Virus record (IMG/VR): IMGVR_UViG_3300036760_000285 | Coordinates: 1-29,440 of that record | Direction: 5' to 3' (one strand) | Length of the DNA stretch: 29,440 nucleotides | From: a virus | Shown here: positions 10,467 through 28,081 of the stretch, piece after piece | Numbering within the stretch: the first letter of the stretch is position 1 | How the letters are laid out: every line of letters starts with the position of its first letter | Position numbers and translations under genes: made by a program | The notes under the pieces: model-generated | Seen by the model: only the letters and a program-made list of their open reading frames with translations | What the model was told of the DNA's origin: nothing | Database searches by the model: none

Positions 10467-10868
10467 TCAGGCCGCGGCTCGGTTCCGCTCCCGAGCACAG
10501 GCGCGGCAATGACGCTGTCCCCTCCAGCGGTAGGTGTTCTCCTCGTCGTAGAGGTGACCCTTCGGGCAGTGCGTCTTCACGATGTGAGCGGCCGGCACCG
10601 TCTCTCCGCGAAGCAGGTTTTCGCGCTTGGTCACTGGCTCGAGATGAGCAGGGTTCACGCACCCGCGATTCCGGCAGAGGTGATCGATCGTCAGGCCCTC
10701 GGGGATCGGCCCGACGACTAGCTCGTAGGCCACCCGGTGAGCACGATGGTTCCGGCCCTCGAATCTGAAGACACCGTAGCCGTCCCAATAACGCGCGGCT
10801 CGCCACTCCCAACACTCATCCGGCCCGCGGAGATCGACCTTCGACCAGAAGCGCGATGTCTGATCCAC
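10467..10868 (-). CDS. HNH homing endonuclease-like protein (copy 1)
   Basis: A 133-aa HNH nuclease starting at GTG 10868 behind GAGGAG. It has the C-W-E-W and GYGVF strand region near 19-34, then the core TIDHLCRNRGCVNPAHLEPV with His63, Asn72 and His75, and a C-terminal zinc segment KTHCPKGHLYD plus CRACARER. It closely resembles the HNH gene at 27569-28081 along its full length, implying a shared mobile ancestor. It sits between the small and large terminase genes, a common insertion place for free-standing homing endonucleases, which cut genomes lacking the insertion and spread by repair. A packaging role is less likely because another HNH fills that place. Confidence 0.85.
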   Translation of the reverse strand: MDQTSRFWSKVDLRGPDECWEWRAARYWDGYGVFRFEGRNHRAHRVAYELVVGPIPEGLTIDHLCRNRGCVNPAHLEPVTKRENLLRGETVPAAHIVKTHCPKGHLYDEENTYRWRGQRHCRACARERNRAAA

Positions 10869-12506: not shown

Positions 12507-12511
12507 CTACG

Positions 12512-12631
12512 TCACGCCGCGCTCGCCGTCGTCGGTACAGCTTCGTCACGCCGGTCGGCGACGAGCACGCAATAGCACGCGCGAAGGAATGGCCACAACC
12601 GACCACATCGAGAGCAGGTCCGTGGGTGCAT
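12512..12631 (-). CDS. 39-aa Cys-containing small protein (tentative)
   Basis: A candidate gene supported mainly by a good ribosome site, GGAGG five bases before ATG 12631, and by ending just ahead of the next start. The protein begins MHPRTCSRCGRLWPFLRACY and has a C-x2-C pair plus two further cysteines, suggesting a metal knuckle. A competing frame starts at GTG 12669 and overlaps this one for about 45 codons before turning into an Arg-rich shadow of the following gene. G/C use at third positions does not clearly choose between the two. Function unknown. Confidence 0.35.
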   Translation of the reverse strand: MHPRTCSRCGRLWPFLRACYCVLVADRRDEAVPTTASAA

Positions 12632-12823
12632 CGATCCTCCGTGGTTCGCGCGCCGCAGCCGAGACTCACGTCATCGTTGCCGAGCTGCCCTGAAGCGGAT
12701 TGGTCTCGGACGGTGAGAGGTCTCGGCGCGGCGCGACGGCCTCAGATCCGGGGGTTCGTGCGGCCGGGCTGGGCACGGCTTACGCACAAGGCGCCTCGAA
12801 CTTTAGTTGCACCGGGGGCCATA
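12632..12823 (-). other. Low-coding stretch after the TnpB-like gene
   Basis: These 192 bases hold no convincing gene. A 26-codon frame from ATG 12822 (MAPGATKVRGALCV...) and a 23-codon frame ending at 12670 are the only openings. Short self-complementary pieces are visible (GTGCG with CGCAC near 12763-12786). In TnpB systems the guide RNA comes from the 3' end of the gene and the bases after it, so this is where such an RNA would be expected. No IS end, TAM-flanked terminal hairpin or repeat array was recognised. Confidence 0.3.
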
Positions 12824-13786
12824 TCAAGCACCCTCACCTGCAGGAGCGATCGGATTCCCCCATGCATCGTGTGTGCGATAGGACTCGGCGAGCCGCTCCT
12901 GGATCGCAGCATTTGAGCGCTCCTCGCGCTCCAGGAGCGCCTTCTTACGCATCTCGGTCCGGTATTGCCGCAGGTCAGGAGCCTCTTTGCGGGCTTGTAT
13001 CTCAGCGGCCGAGGGCAACCGCCCGACGCGATATCGAAAGTGGTAGCAGCGTGAGCACGCGCCAGCCTTCCATACGAAGCCGTCGCATCCTTCCGCCTCG
13101 CACTCGGGCAGAGTCAGCTGGAAGCGGTTCGCTGCCTTGGCCGCGATGTTGATCGCTGCGATCACATCGGCCTGCCCGGCAAGCCCACATGTCTGGCACT
13201 CGAATCTGTCTCGGCTGATGCGGTTGGCGCGGGACTTCACGCCGCAACGTGGACAGGTGATCGAGGTATATGCACGATTCACAGTAGTGATCGGTACGTG
13301 ACGATCGGTCGCTCGATCACGGATCGCTGCCCACACTCGTACCCATGCCGGCTTGCGTCGTGAGAATCCGCCCCAGTTCTCAAGAGCGAGGCCACGCTTC
13401 GAGCGTTCAGCAGTCGCCACGATCTGCTTCGCCAGGTGCGCAACGACCGGCACATCGTGGGTCGAGCGCGCCCACACCTCAGCAGCTCCACGCGGTGAAT
13501 AAGCCTCCCGCGTGAACACCGCGCCGTTCAGCTTCCGGATCGTTACCGGCCCCGCCTGCGGGACGATGAGCTTGTCCCGTGATCCCGACCACCGATAGAC
13601 GCGACCATCCGAGTCTGCTGCGGGGAACACCCAGCCCACGTCGATCCCGAGCCAGCCATTGTCGAGCGGCCCCATCGCCTCGCGGGCTTGCCTCTCGGCT
13701 AGCTTCGCCGCCGCGATGACGGCCTTGTCTGCCAGCACGGCGTTCTGCATCTCAAGTGCCTGATCCCAGTCGACCTCTTGGCTCAG
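12824..13786 (-). CDS. Compact TnpB/Cas12-like RuvC nuclease with extra zinc knuckle
   Basis: A ~320-aa protein with the RuvC nuclease core of TnpB/Cas12 proteins: WLGIDVGWVFP (Asp49), GLALENWGG (Glu136), then a zinc ribbon CPRCG...CQTCG (Cys178, 181, 197, 200) and ADVIAAINIA (Asp207, Asn213). All three catalytic acids are present. Unlike TnpB (~400 aa) it has only ~45 residues before the first RuvC motif, so the recognition/wedge half is missing; an in-frame TAG just upstream excludes a longer reading. It also carries a second zinc knuckle (Cys229, 234, 244, 247) and a ~70-residue charged tail. Start: CTG 13786 after AGGAGG, overlapping the previous stop; ATG 13750 is the alternative. No tnpA gene is nearby. 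Confidence 0.75.
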   Translation of the reverse strand: MSQEVDWDQALEMQNAVLADKAVIAAAKLAERQAREAMGPLDNGWLGIDVGWVFPAADSDGRVYRWSGSRDKLIVPQAGPVTIRKLNGAVFTREAYSPRGAAEVWARSTHDVPVVAHLAKQIVATAERSKRGLALENWGGFSRRKPAWVRVWAAIRDRATDRHVPITTVNRAYTSITCPRCGVKSRANRISRDRFECQTCGLAGQADVIAAINIAAKAANRFQLTLPECEAEGCDGFVWKAGACSRCYHFRYRVGRLPSAAEIQARKEAPDLRQYRTEMRKKALLEREERSNAAIQERLAESYRTHDAWGNPIAPAGEGA

Positions 13787-14310
13787 CGTGGCCTCCTACG
13801 CCGTGATCCGAACAGCGACGGATCGAGCTCCTTCGCCGACGGGGACCTACCCACGCCGACCTCTTCTCCGCGTTCACGCCGTCGAGCTTGGGCCTCGAGC
13901 AGCTCGGCGTGTTCGTTCGACAGTGGATCCAGCGATCGCGGGTTTCGCATCGGGTCGAACACGCCATGCGGACGCTCGTCGCGAAGCATCTTCTCCTTGA
14001 GCTTGTCGACGTCGAGCGAGACGGCCTTTGTCGACGCGCGGATGGTGATGGCGGCATGGGTGAGCTGTCCGCGCAGACCGGCGTGATCGAACGCCGTCGA
14101 GTGCATCGGGTTCGGGTCGGTCCCTTTCAACGCCGCTCGCACGATGTCGCCGTCGCGATCTGGTCGTCCACTCGTCACATGGGCTTGCTCGATGACCTGC
14201 TGGCTGTACGCGACCCCCGATGCCCAGCGGAACTCGTTCTGCAGCTGCTTGATCTCCGCGATCAGCGTTCGGCACGCCGCGTCGAATACGTCGGGGCTCG
14301 GCGCGGTCAT
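13783..14310 (-). CDS. 175-aa early protein, unknown
   Basis: ATG 14310 overlaps the previous stop (ATGA), and the frame's upstream extension is a shadow of that gene. The protein begins MTAPSPDVFDAACRTLIAEI, has an N-terminal helical region (QLQNEFRWASGVAYSQQVIE), a central helix rich in Ala/Lys/Asp (AVSLDVDKLKEKMLRDER) and a very basic C-terminus (LFGSRRRRPR) that may bind nucleic acid. It does not resemble the missing N-terminal half of a TnpB protein. Its last codons contain the AGGAGG used by the TnpB-like gene downstream, tying their translation together. Confidence 0.7.
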   Translation of the reverse strand: MTAPSPDVFDAACRTLIAEIKQLQNEFRWASGVAYSQQVIEQAHVTSGRPDRDGDIVRAALKGTDPNPMHSTAFDHAGLRGQLTHAAITIRASTKAVSLDVDKLKEKMLRDERPHGVFDPMRNPRSLDPLSNEHAELLEAQARRRERGEEVGVGRSPSAKELDPSLFGSRRRRPR

Positions 14311-14456
14311 GCCATCCCCAGGAACTTGCGGATCGCGGCGGCGAGTTCCATCTGCCCCGAGAGATCGCACTCGTTCTCGACCCACGTGAGCAGACCTTCG
14401 GCCTTCTGGAGTCGCTTCATGCAGCGGTGCAGCGCGACGCGGTCGCGGAGGCTCAC
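14307..14456 (-). CDS. 49-aa small helical protein, unknown
   Basis: This short gene fills the gap between the resolvase and the 175-aa gene with perfect overlaps at both ends: GTG 14456 inside GTGA with the resolvase stop, and its own TGA inside ATGA with the next start. The protein begins MSLRDRVALHRCMKRLQKAE and appears to be two helices (residues 3-28 and 33-47). G/C-rich third codon positions agree with coding. No known family is recognised. Its tight packing in the operon is the main support. Confidence 0.65.
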   Translation of the reverse strand: MSLRDRVALHRCMKRLQKAEGLLTWVENECDLSGQMELAAAIRKFLGMA

Positions 14457-14965
14457 GCCGCCCCCTCTCGGAGTTCGGGCCACGCGATCTTCGCGATCAC
14501 GGCGCGTTGGTAGGCGAGACTCGCGCGCGCGCCGAGGTCGTAGTGCAGGAGTCCCATCGCGCGGAGCATCAGCGCCTCAGCCTCATTGTCGTCGGTGCCT
14601 TGATAGCCGAAGCGTTCCCGTGCAGCGATGACCATCTCGACCTTCTTAGCGTTACCACGATCCGTCGCGAACTTCTTGAGCTGCGACGGGATGATCGTGA
14701 CGAACGGGATCTCGCCGTGGTGAAGCGCCAGCCGGATGACGCCGCCGAGCTCGCCGATCTCGTGCGCATGGGCTGCGTGTGCCGAGTAGGCGTAGTCCTC
14801 GAGCACGACGAGGTCGGCGCCCGTCGCGACCTCGAAGATGCGCGCCTCGAGGTCGGCCAGGCGGTCGACCCCGATGAGACTCGAGCGGATCGTGCTCACG
14901 CCCTCAGCGTCGGCGACACCTGAAGCAGAGAGCGACAGATCAAGCCCCATCACGCGCGGAGTCAT
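14453..14965 (-). CDS. RuvC-like Holliday junction resolvase
   Basis: A 170-aa protein with the RuvC fold: RVMGLDLSLSASGVA gives the first acid (Asp9), VVLEDYAYSAH the second (Glu56), IIPSQLKKFATDRGNAKK the basic DNA-contact helix, and TDDNEAEALMLRAMG the third acid cluster (Asp125-Glu128). RuvC enzymes cut four-way junctions; phage versions clear branched DNA from recombination or replication before packaging. It lies after the recombination/replication genes and ahead of packaging genes, as expected. ATG 14965 overlaps the previous stop. Confidence 0.88.
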   Translation of the reverse strand: MTPRVMGLDLSLSASGVADAEGVSTIRSSLIGVDRLADLEARIFEVATGADLVVLEDYAYSAHAAHAHEIGELGGVIRLALHHGEIPFVTIIPSQLKKFATDRGNAKKVEMVIAARERFGYQGTDDNEAEALMLRAMGLLHYDLGARASLAYQRAVIAKIAWPELREGAA

Positions 14966-16177: not shown

Positions 16178-17971
16178 TCACGCCGCACCCTCGAGGAACA
16201 GCAGTGGCGTCGCGACGGCATGGCCTGGTGTCGGGTACTCGATCAGCCCGAGCGTGCGCAGCCGCCCGAGGATGTTGCCGAAGGTCCCGCCGACAGCGGG
16301 TCCGACGGAGTAGCCCGCACGCGCACCGAGCTCCTGTTTCGCGAGCGGGTCGGGGTAGATGTCGATGAGCACCTGCAGGACCCGTTGCTCCGGTCCCCCT
16401 AAGCGCGCGAAGACGGCGTCCTGCAGCGCCTCGGTCGTCGGCGCGATCCGCGGTGACTCGGCGCGATCACGCCCCGGATCGAGCAGCCACACGCATCCCG
16501 GCGCGGGATAGTCGATCAAGCCATCCGAGCGCAGGCCGCCAAGCAGGTTGCCGAACGTCCCGCCGATGGCCTTGCCCACGCGATAGCCGGCGATGAATCC
16601 GACCTGGATCTTCGTAGGTTGGTCGAAGCCGACGGCGTTCAGCCACGCGATGGCATCGAGCACGCGCCGCTGAGGGCCAGTGAGATCCCCGGCGACGGCC
16701 GGGCCGGATGTCCGCGGTACATCAGTCCGCGCGGCTCCGGCCGTCTTGGTCCCCGGGGCAGCCGATACGCGCATGGGGGCCGGGGATTGATCCTCTGCGG
16801 CCTCGAGTCCCGAGGCCGTATGTCGTTGGAGCTCGTCGGCGATCTGCGAGAGCGACTCGGCGAAGGCACGCGCGCCGTTGCGGAGCGTTTCGGTGTCGGC
16901 GTGGATCCCTTTGAGCGCCTCGAAGACCGGCGGCGGGACGTGCGCGACCTCGACGCGCTCGATAACCGGCTCCGGCGGGCTGATCTGCACGAGGTTGGCC
17001 CGCTCACGCTGCTCCGCCGCCAGCTCCCGACGCAGATCCGCGATCTGCTTCCGCAGCACCGCCGGATCGTCGGCCTTGGCACGTTCGATAGTCGCGGCCA
17101 TCTGCACCGTGATCGCGTCGAGGTCGACGTCGGCGAGCGTGGCCACGGCGCGCTTGGCCTTCACGCCGGGAGTCGCGCCGCTATCGAACGTCTGCCGCCG
17201 GCGGATCTGCACGCGCTTCGTGAGGTTGAGCCACGGCGACCACACCCATGCCTCGCCGGGCGCAAGCGATGACAGCGACTCGAGGATCTCCTCGGACTGC
17301 CCGTGGTACTTCACCCAGTCGGCGATCGCCTTGCGATCCTGCGGCGACGTGGTCCGCAGCACGATCAGCGTCTCGATCTGGGTCAACACGTCTTTGTTCA
17401 GGCTCGCCGACCGCTGCGAGATCATCGTGCAGCCAAGCCCGCGCGCGCGGCCGCGCTTCACGATCCGCTCGAACGCGCCGAGACAGCGCGCCACGTCGCC
17501 GGTCGCTCGCTGAGGGATGTAGTCGTCGGCCTCCTCGAGGAACAGGTGTAGCGGCGAGTCGTGCTCGGGCTTGCCCTTCTGCAGGTACAGCCGCTCCGCG
17601 AACATCCAGAGGAACCGGCGCTTGGCGGTCTCGGAGTCGAACGCCGACACGTCGAGGACGGCGGATAGGTTCTCCTCGACGATCAGGTCGGCGATGAGTG
17701 CGCCGCCGCCGGGCTCGAGCGGCACGTCTCCGCGGTAGCCGCCGAAGATCGGGACCGGCAGCCCGGTGCCCTTGCCGTCGGCGGAGGATCGCAGGCCCCA
17801 CCACGCACCGACGGGATCCACGACGACGAACGGCAGCCCAGCCTTGTGCATCTCCTCGGCCAGGACGGCGCCGGCGTTCGATTTTCCAGATCCGCGTTTC
17901 GCGAGGATCCCGATGGCCTGCGTGACGGCCTCGTCGGGGAACTTCAGCCCGGGTGCGAGGGTGAGCGTCAC
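16178..17971 (-). CDS. HerA/FtsK-like DNA translocase with duplicated winged helix
   Basis: A 597-aa ATPase from GTG 17971 (GTGA overlap). Walker A is AKRGSGKS (24-31); Walker B is LHLFLEEADD (141-150), followed by a sensor-like CTMISQRSASLNKD and an arginine-rich strand, as in HerA/FtsK motors that pump double-stranded DNA. After a coiled-coil-like stretch (about 310-420) the C-terminus has two tandem copies of a winged-helix unit, both with the pattern GGTFGN-x-LG-x-LR followed by GLIDYPAPG or GLIEYPTPG. There is no HAS-barrel and no NurA nuclease gene nearby. It could move phage DNA during replication, segregation or recombination. Confidence 0.8.
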   Translation of the reverse strand: MTLTLAPGLKFPDEAVTQAIGILAKRGSGKSNAGAVLAEEMHKAGLPFVVVDPVGAWWGLRSSADGKGTGLPVPIFGGYRGDVPLEPGGGALIADLIVEENLSAVLDVSAFDSETAKRRFLWMFAERLYLQKGKPEHDSPLHLFLEEADDYIPQRATGDVARCLGAFERIVKRGRARGLGCTMISQRSASLNKDVLTQIETLIVLRTTSPQDRKAIADWVKYHGQSEEILESLSSLAPGEAWVWSPWLNLTKRVQIRRRQTFDSGATPGVKAKRAVATLADVDLDAITVQMAATIERAKADDPAVLRKQIADLRRELAAEQRERANLVQISPPEPVIERVEVAHVPPPVFEALKGIHADTETLRNGARAFAESLSQIADELQRHTASGLEAAEDQSPAPMRVSAAPGTKTAGAARTDVPRTSGPAVAGDLTGPQRRVLDAIAWLNAVGFDQPTKIQVGFIAGYRVGKAIGGTFGNLLGGLRSDGLIDYPAPGCVWLLDPGRDRAESPRIAPTTEALQDAVFARLGGPEQRVLQVLIDIYPDPLAKQELGARAGYSVGPAVGGTFGNILGRLRTLGLIEYPTPGHAVATPLLFLEGAA

Positions 17972-18393
17972 GCCGTCACGCCCTCGCCGATCTCCTCGAG
18001 CGTGATCCCGTACTTCGCGCCGAGCTCGGGGAACCGCGCGACGGACTGCTTGTCCTCGTCGCTCGCGTGGGTCTCGATCCAATGGGCGAATGCGTGCGCG
18101 GCAGTCCTGCAGCACGCCGGCCGAGGATCCACCGACTCCGGCAGCGCGATCCCGTTGGCGAGGCGGAGCTGCGCCGCACGCTTGGCGGCCTCGTGGATCT
18201 GCAGCACGGTCGGGGGGAACGCGCCCGAGAACCGCTCGATCGCGACCTTCGCGTCGTCTTGGCTGATGCGGGGGTCGGCGAGCTTGTCGATGTAGAGCTT
18301 CATCTCGAGGTCGTCGCCTGGATCGGTTGGCGCGGGCTGGTGCCAGATCGTCCGCACGTAGGCCAGACACTCCATCGCCTCGCCGGCCTTCAC
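17968..18393 (-). CDS. Possible helicase loader (G39P-like)
   Basis: A 141-aa protein from GTG 18393, overlapping the stop upstream. The N-terminal half, YVRTIWHQ to DPRISQDDAKVAIERFSG then AFPPTVLQIHEAAKRAA, follows the pattern of phage helicase loader/inhibitor proteins (a helix, a D-A-x-x-A-I-E helix, then F-P-P-T-x-x-x-I). Those proteins bring the host DnaB helicase to the phage origin. It lies just after the initiator gene that holds iterons, and no phage helicase gene is visible, which fits. The C-terminal half (AAHAFAHWIETHASDEDK) is helical. The match is a pattern only and the call is tentative. Confidence 0.45.
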   Translation of the reverse strand: MKAGEAMECLAYVRTIWHQPAPTDPGDDLEMKLYIDKLADPRISQDDAKVAIERFSGAFPPTVLQIHEAAKRAAQLRLANGIALPESVDPRPACCRTAAHAFAHWIETHASDEDKQSVARFPELGAKYGITLEEIGEGVTA

Positions 18394-27568: not shown

Positions 27569-28081
27569 CTAGTGCGCCGGTGTCTTGCTGCGGATCAGAT
27601 CGAAGGCCTTTCGAGCCCGATACCGTCGCTGGTAGATCACCATGCAGCGACGACAGGAGCGTCCCCCAGACGGAGGCCAGTAGGTGTTCCCCTGGTCATA
27701 TGCATGGCCGAGCGGACAATGCGTCTTGGCCCTGTTCACCGGGTTGCCCTTCACCGGCACGCGGCGCATGTTCTCCGCGTGCTTCACGGGTTCCAAGTGC
27801 TCCGGGTTGACGCAGGCGCGATTGCGACAGAGATGGTCGATCTCTGTGCCATCGGGGATCGGCCCGCGCGTGAGTTCGTAGACGACACGATGGGCCAGGC
27901 GTGTCGTCCGACCATGCTCTTCCATGATGTAGAACTGCCCATAGCCGTTCGGGTAGAACGCGGCGAGCCACAGCCAGCAGTCGGAAGGCCCGGTCCTGAG
28001 AACCTTCGGCCAGAACCGGGCCTCGACTGATTGGCGGGTTCCCTTAGGGCGTCCGGTCGGTCGACCTGTTCGTCTGCTCAT
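27569..28081 (-). CDS. HNH homing endonuclease-like protein (copy 2)
   Basis: A 170-aa HNH nuclease. A basic N-terminus with two G-R-P units (RRTGRPTGRPKGTRQ) resembles an AT-hook. Then come DCWLWLAAFYPNGYGQF, the core EIDHLCRNRACVNPEHLEPV (His83, Asn92, His95) and a C-terminal zinc part (THCPLGHAYD, CRRCMVIYQ). It is clearly paralogous to the gene at 10467-10868 but has a longer start and an acidic insertion (MEEHGRTTR). Set between the holin-like gene and a hairpin, it is best explained as a mobile homing gene. The start ATG has only a weak ribosome site. Confidence 0.85.
   Translation of the reverse strand: MSRRTGRPTGRPKGTRQSVEARFWPKVLRTGPSDCWLWLAAFYPNGYGQFYIMEEHGRTTRLAHRVVYELTRGPIPDGTEIDHLCRNRACVNPEHLEPVKHAENMRRVPVKGNPVNRAKTHCPLGHAYDQGNTYWPPSGGRSCRRCMVIYQRRYRARKAFDLIRSKTPAH

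What the first reader, a model, noticed from the sequence alone, without database searches (positions are those of the whole stretch)
12824..13786. Phage-operon TnpB/Cas12-like nuclease without its N-terminal half but with intact RuvC site and an added zinc knuckle
Seen: three RuvC acids (Asp49, Glu136, Asp207) and the CPRCG/CQTCG ribbon are intact, yet only ~45 residues precede the first RuvC motif, with an in-frame TAG upstream. A second C-x4-C-x9-C-x2-C knuckle and a charged tail follow. Known: TnpB and Cas12 need N-terminal wedge/recognition regions for guide RNA and target binding. The gene is translationally coupled in the early operon, with no tnpA. Inference: a domesticated, possibly guide-independent or partner-dependent RuvC nuclease of the phage.
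Basis: partly seen in the sequence, partly recalled or inferred. Interest (0 to 1): 0.8.

Follow-up and report, generated by a model that had tools for sequence, protein, structure and literature searches.

The report
Phage nuclease stripped to its blade
A phage carries the cutting half of an RNA-guided TnpB nuclease without the half that holds the guide RNA, and with a phage-type zinc finger added; it may be a guide-free DNA-cutting enzyme, but it is one gene with no known sister.

Summary
Window 12824-13786 (-) encodes a 320-aa protein (CTG start overlapping the upstream stop; AGGAGG 5 nt before it). It is the RuvC+TNB half of a TnpB/Cas12f-type nuclease: acids D49/E136/D207, four TNB cysteines, and structure Z 14.7 to Cas12f residues ~216-421. 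Only 44 residues precede RuvC-I, against a mean of 206 (minimum 83) in 225 aligned relatives. The WED/REC half is absent from the whole 29.4-kb record, while the same profile finds it at 5e-26 in a split phage TnpB. The basic RuvC-I/II insert and the lid are also remodelled (4/23 and 4/23 family-conserved positions kept); catalytic strands and TNB are largely kept. No tnpA, CRISPR-like repeat or unusually structured downstream RNA was found. The C-terminal C-x4-C-x9-C-x2-C resembles a phage zinc knuckle (GordTnk2 gp38, annotated HNH). The gene ends a RecT/ParB/HerA/RuvC module and scores as coding. Best explanation: a TnpB-derived, guide-independent RuvC nuclease whose DNA binding moved to the knuckle (about 0.5). 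Nothing else searched shares the architecture, so conservation is untested and a relic stays possible. New variant of a known kind.

The parts
12824..13786 (-). mini RuvC-TNB nuclease gene, 320 aa, CTG start at 13786 (or 308 aa from ATG at 13750), TGA stop 12824-12826
13792..13797 (-). AGGAGG ribosome-binding site, 5 nt before the CTG; in-frame TAG overlaps at 13796-13798
   Evidence: sequence
13655..13786 (-). residues 1-44: helical N-terminus in place of the WED/REC lobe
   Evidence: model helix 7-37; no WED/REC profile match in the record
13121..13654 (-). residues 45-222: RuvC (RNase H fold) core with TNB zinc ribbon; D49 13640-13642, E136 13379-13381, D207 13166-13168; C178/C181/C197/C200
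13046..13102 (-). residues 229-247: second zinc knuckle C-x4-C-x9-C-x2-C-Y, of the kind in a phage protein annotated HNH (GordTnk2 gp38)
12827..13045 (-). residues 248-320: charged, mostly helical tail (helices 260-268 and 272-305 in the model)
13783..14310 (-). 175-aa all-helical protein of unknown family, stop overlaps the mini start
14453..14965 (-). separate phage RuvC-like Holliday junction resolvase (phrog_159)
12507..12823 (.). about 317-nt gap after the gene: no coding signal, no unusual RNA structure, no Rfam family; so no sign of an omega RNA

Best explanation
It is a TnpB-derived RuvC endonuclease that has lost RNA guidance. The RuvC fold with its three acids would cut nucleic acid with metal ions. 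The TNB ribbon is retained as part of the fold. The missing wedge/recognition lobe, the remodelled basic insert (in the part of RuvC that contacts the omega RNA in ISDra2 TnpB) and the shortened lid mean that it probably no longer builds a guide RNA-DNA heteroduplex. Substrate binding would instead come from the added phage-type zinc knuckle and charged tail, as in small phage HNH-type proteins. Its place at the end of a RecT/ParB/HerA/RuvC module suggests a role in phage DNA processing (recombination intermediates, homing-like cutting or cutting of competitor DNA). Shown: gene, residues, predicted fold, absence of the guide lobe from the record. Inferred: metal catalysis, guide independence, DNA binding by the knuckle, pathway.
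For: Catalytic and TNB residues intact and frame coding at about 36% identity to the nearest TnpBs. Fold match to Cas12f RuvC+TNB only, Z 14.7, rmsd 3.0-3.3. N-terminus 44 vs 206 aa, lid 15 vs 27 aa (shortest of 226), K+R fraction of the I-II insert 0.15 vs 0.32 (minimum of the others 0.17). Against 21 mostly actinobacterial relatives it keeps 4/23 conserved positions of the insert and 4/23 of the lid (means 19.2 and 19.4) but 7/12 of RuvC-I, 11/17 of RuvC-II and 21/29 of TNB/RuvC-III. No WED/REC anywhere in the record, control 5e-26. No structured RNA downstream, z -0.27; no TnpA or OrfB_IS605. Knuckle matches the spacing in GordTnk2 gp38. omega-RNA contacts of Q227/R231/R232/R238/K263 and WED/REC roles in ISDra2 TnpB: PMC10097598.
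Against: No relative with the same architecture, so no conservation test of the tail or knuckle; the C-terminal third has the weakest coding signal and the knuckle region is not confidently modelled (pLDDT 44-55). One metagenomic contig only. I know of no report of a TnpB RuvC domain cutting DNA without a guide. The longest terminal branch of the tree would also fit relaxed constraint.
Confidence: 0.5

Rival explanations
1. A truncated, no longer functional TnpB captured in the operon: an IS200/605-type gene lost its 5' half and lingers as an open frame by chance.
For: Actinomadura and Streptomyces genomes carry many short TnpB remnants; no relative keeps the short form; longest branch in the tree; weak coding score in the C-terminal third.
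Against: All catalytic and zinc residues kept at about 36% identity; strong SD and stop/start overlap; the N-terminal 44 aa score as coding and are modelled as a helix, not a leftover WED strand; a knuckle not seen in any TnpB relative has been added.
Confidence: 0.2
2. Still RNA-guided, with a bulky RNA or a partner protein replacing the missing lobe (as the RNA does in IscB/IsrB).
For: RuvC core net charge +15; [quoted passage not shown]
Against: No unusual RNA structure in the 320 nt downstream, no Rfam match, no short-spaced repeats, basic insert lost; the upstream 175-aa protein is all-helical in a poor model and does not match the WED/REC profile.
Confidence: 0.12
3. A recombination nuclease partner: it serves the phage HerA-like ATPase or RecT, in the way that NurA serves HerA, and acts on DNA ends or junctions.
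For: Same-strand module with RecT, ParB-like, replication initiator, HerA-like ATPase and RuvC-like resolvase.
Against: Not adjacent to HerA; the module already has a RuvC-fold resolvase; no sequence or structure link to NurA was tested.
Confidence: 0.13
4. A decoy or inhibitor of host TnpB/Cas12 that does not cut.
For: Phages encode TnpB-derived regulators such as TldR (PMC13418256), and anti-CRISPR proteins (own knowledge).
Against: Active-site acids all intact, unlike TldR (own knowledge); the omega-RNA contact region is lost, so it should not compete for the RNA.
Confidence: 0.05

Closest known systems
TnpB (IS200/IS605 and IS607 RNA-guided nucleases; nearest here Actinomadura sp. KC345, locus L180, 36-41% identity over residues 31-223)
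   Same: RuvC I/II/III acids, TNB zinc ribbon, core fold
   Different: no WED/REC lobe, basic insert and lid remodelled, extra knuckle and tail, no tnpA and no sign of an omega RNA
Cas12f (type V-F)
   Same: best fold match, RuvC+TNB, Z 14.7
   Different: no N-terminal lobe, no CRISPR-like repeats in the record
TldR (phage TnpB-derived RNA-guided regulators)
   Same: TnpB-derived gene in a phage that carries an integrase
   Different: TldR keeps the RNA-binding lobe and loses the RuvC acids (own knowledge); here the reverse
RuvC Holliday junction resolvase (T. thermophilus 4ep4/4ld0)
   Same: RNase H fold, Z 11.3, guide-free
   Different: no TNB zinc ribbon, no sequence match; this phage has its own RuvC-like resolvase two genes upstream
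GordTnk2 gp38, annotated HNH endonuclease
   Same: C-x4-C-x9-C-x2-[H/C]-Y knuckle with a charged stretch after it
   Different: two tandem knuckles, no RuvC domain; similarity is weak (E 5)

Membership tests
TnpB | RuvC triad D/E/D and TNB four-cysteine ribbon | tested here: met
TnpB | N-terminal WED/REC lobe | tested here: not met
   44 aa before RuvC-I; profile silent over the record, control 5e-26
TnpB | OrfB_IS605 central domain (PF01385) | tested here: not met
   no match at E 1, control genomes ring
TnpB | omega RNA at or after the 3' end of the gene | tested here: inconclusive
   no excess structure, no Rfam; needs RNA sequencing
TnpB | curated TnpB family score (NF040570, cut-off 100 bits) | tested here: not met
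   43.8 bits, only profile positions 330-389
Cas12f | linked CRISPR array | tested here: not met
   no direct repeats of 24 nt or more within 120 nt in the record; the record may be a fragment
TldR | degenerate RuvC acids | tested here: not met
   all three intact
RuvC Holliday junction resolvase | sequence match to PF02075 or phage resolvase PHROGs | tested here: not met
   no match for this protein; the neighbour matches
any of the above | nuclease activity and its substrate | not testable with these tools
   needs purified protein

The most novel reading that the evidence does not exclude
A TnpB-class RuvC nuclease that a phage has cut loose from RNA guidance and re-aimed with its own zinc knuckle: the reverse of the TldR route (lobe kept, blade lost), that is, blade kept and lobe lost.
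Probability: 0.42. Interest if true: 0.8.

Novelty: new variant of a known kind. Interest (0 to 1): 0.52.

Why it matters
As far as I know, all tested TnpB and Cas12 enzymes work with a guide RNA and the wedge/recognition lobe. A natural protein that keeps only RuvC and TNB would make it directly testable whether that nuclease core can work alone, would give a minimal enzyme for study, and would add a third fate (nuclease without guide) to the two known for TnpB-derived genes (guided nuclease, guided regulator).

Tried and rejected
Single-protein pattern scans of viral and genome contigs found no close relative. Alignment scans gave TnpB relatives; those with intact frames are full-length or nearly so. 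Rhodothermus phage RM378 gp58 looked like a second short form, but gp57 just upstream holds the WED/REC half: a split TnpB. Two pattern scans for TNB plus knuckle were void because my pattern was one base short (it did not match the window). The corrected pattern matched the window and gave six hits in viral contigs, all out of frame, and none in 396 Actinomycetota genomes; it allows only TGC for C181 and this knuckle spacing. A first codon-usage run had two genes out of frame and was redone. Terminase relatives carry nothing like it. The knuckle hit in MT839698.1 is not in a convincing gene. The 175-aa neighbour has no relatives found and only a poor model. NurA does not figure among the PDB rows seen; that is not a test. 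One Pfam call failed on wrong coordinates.

Full report
Observation. The reverse strand of 12824-13786 encodes 320 aa. Upstream in frame there is a TAG, then AGGAGG and, 5 nt on, a CTG that overlaps the stop of a 175-aa ORF.

What it is. Pfam Cas12f1-like_TNB matches at 2e-14, the NCBI TnpB model only over its last 60 positions and below its cut-off, PADLOC Cas12 models only over their ends. A model built with 50 TnpB sequences (mean pLDDT 79; core blocks mostly above 90) aligns to Cas12f with Z 14.7 (rmsd 3.0-3.3 over 147 residues), only to chain residues about 216-421, the RuvC and TNB half; RuvC resolvases follow at Z 11.3. The residues before about 33 and after 226 were barely tested in that comparison.

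How it differs from its relatives. From scans of IMG/VR and GTDB genomes I aligned 226 sequences including this one. The three acids and four cysteines are nearly or fully invariant. This protein has the shortest N-terminus (44 aa; others 206 on average, minimum 83), the shortest lid segment (15; others 27, minimum 18) and the lowest Lys+Arg fraction in the RuvC-I/II insert (0.15; others 0.32, minimum 0.17). Against 21 representatives of the nearest, mostly actinobacterial group it keeps 4 of 23 conserved positions in the insert and 4 of 23 in the lid, but 21 of 29 in the TNB/RuvC-III part, 11 of 17 in RuvC-II and 7 of 12 in RuvC-I. The set of 226 still contains some near-identical contigs; the 106 representatives below 80% identity give the same direction with wider spread. 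In ISDra2 TnpB the WED and REC domains bind the TAM duplex, and RuvC residues Q227, R231, R232, R238 and K263 bind the omega RNA (PMC10097598). I place the lost basic insert in that region by its position between RuvC-I and RuvC-II, not by a residue-level alignment to ISDra2.

Is the missing half elsewhere? A profile of 212 TnpB N-terminal halves finds nothing convincing in six frames of the record (best E 1.7), while it finds the separate N-terminal half in Rhodothermus phage RM378 at 5e-26. OrfB_IS605 and TnpA families are absent too. The 317 nt after the gene are not more structured than shuffles (z -0.27), carry no Rfam family and no coding signal.

The knuckle. C229-x4-C234-x9-C244-x2-C247-Y recurs, with His as last ligand, in Gordonia phage GordTnk2 gp38, a protein annotated HNH that has two such knuckles and a charged stretch after them. 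The match is weak by E-value (5) but exact in spacing. None of the TnpB relatives has it. So the tail looks like a phage module joined to a TnpB core; that is inference from one pair.

Gene or relic? The frame scores best of six overall and in each third, at the level of the record's HNH genes (0.09 against 0.04-0.13), and falls to about zero in the last third. It sits on the longest terminal branch, and its grouping there (support 0.42-0.81) should not be trusted. Actinomadura and Streptomyces genomes contain short TnpB remnants, so a relic is a fair rival. Against it stand the intact site at low identity, the SD and overlap, the coding N-terminus modelled as a helix, and the added knuckle.

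Setting. On the same strand lie a RecT-like annealing protein, ParB-like proteins, a replication initiation protein, a HerA-like ATPase and a RuvC-like resolvase, then the 175-aa protein, this gene, a 317-nt gap, and the HNH/terminase genes. The record is a 29.4-kb IMG/VR contig of unknown host; its terminase is at best 40-48% identical to those of other phages.

Mechanism and confidence. Shown: the gene, its residues, the predicted fold, and that no guide-binding lobe is encoded in the record. Inferred: metal-dependent cutting, freedom from a guide, DNA binding through the knuckle, and a role in phage DNA processing. I put the guide-independent nuclease at 0.5. [quoted passage not shown]

Novelty. 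In 2.9 million viral contigs (by pattern), 192 phage and 36 plasmid records with a match (by tblastn) and some 1,300 genomes of several phyla (by protein; 396 of them also by pattern) there is no second case. These searches are samples, and the host phylum is unknown. Papers found describe TnpB truncated at the C-terminus or phage TldR, not a RuvC-only form (open-access library only). Hence: new variant of a known kind, with interest held down by being a singleton.

Noticed in passing
window 14453-14965: A second, unrelated RuvC-fold protein (phage RuvC-like Holliday junction resolvase) lies two genes upstream, so one short module holds two RuvC-fold nucleases.
   Followed up: partly
window 10467-10868 and 27569-28081: Two HNH endonuclease genes of the same family (phrog_826) in one 29-kb phage, one between the terminase genes.
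   Followed up: no
window 12512-12631 (-): A 39-aa ORF with CSRCG...CYC in the gap after the mini nuclease; coding signal is absent, so probably chance.
   Followed up: partly
window 16178-18000 (-): HerA-like ATPase (DUF87/HerA_C) in a phage replication module without an evident NurA partner.
   Followed up: no
L004 1939-3166 (Rhodothermus phage RM378): gp57 and gp58 together are a TnpB split into overlapping frames; gp58 alone is annotated transposase.
   Followed up: yes
L046, L054, L089: A phage TnpB-like group of 350-362 aa with a short lid; could be domesticated TnpBs. Their context was not examined.
   Followed up: no
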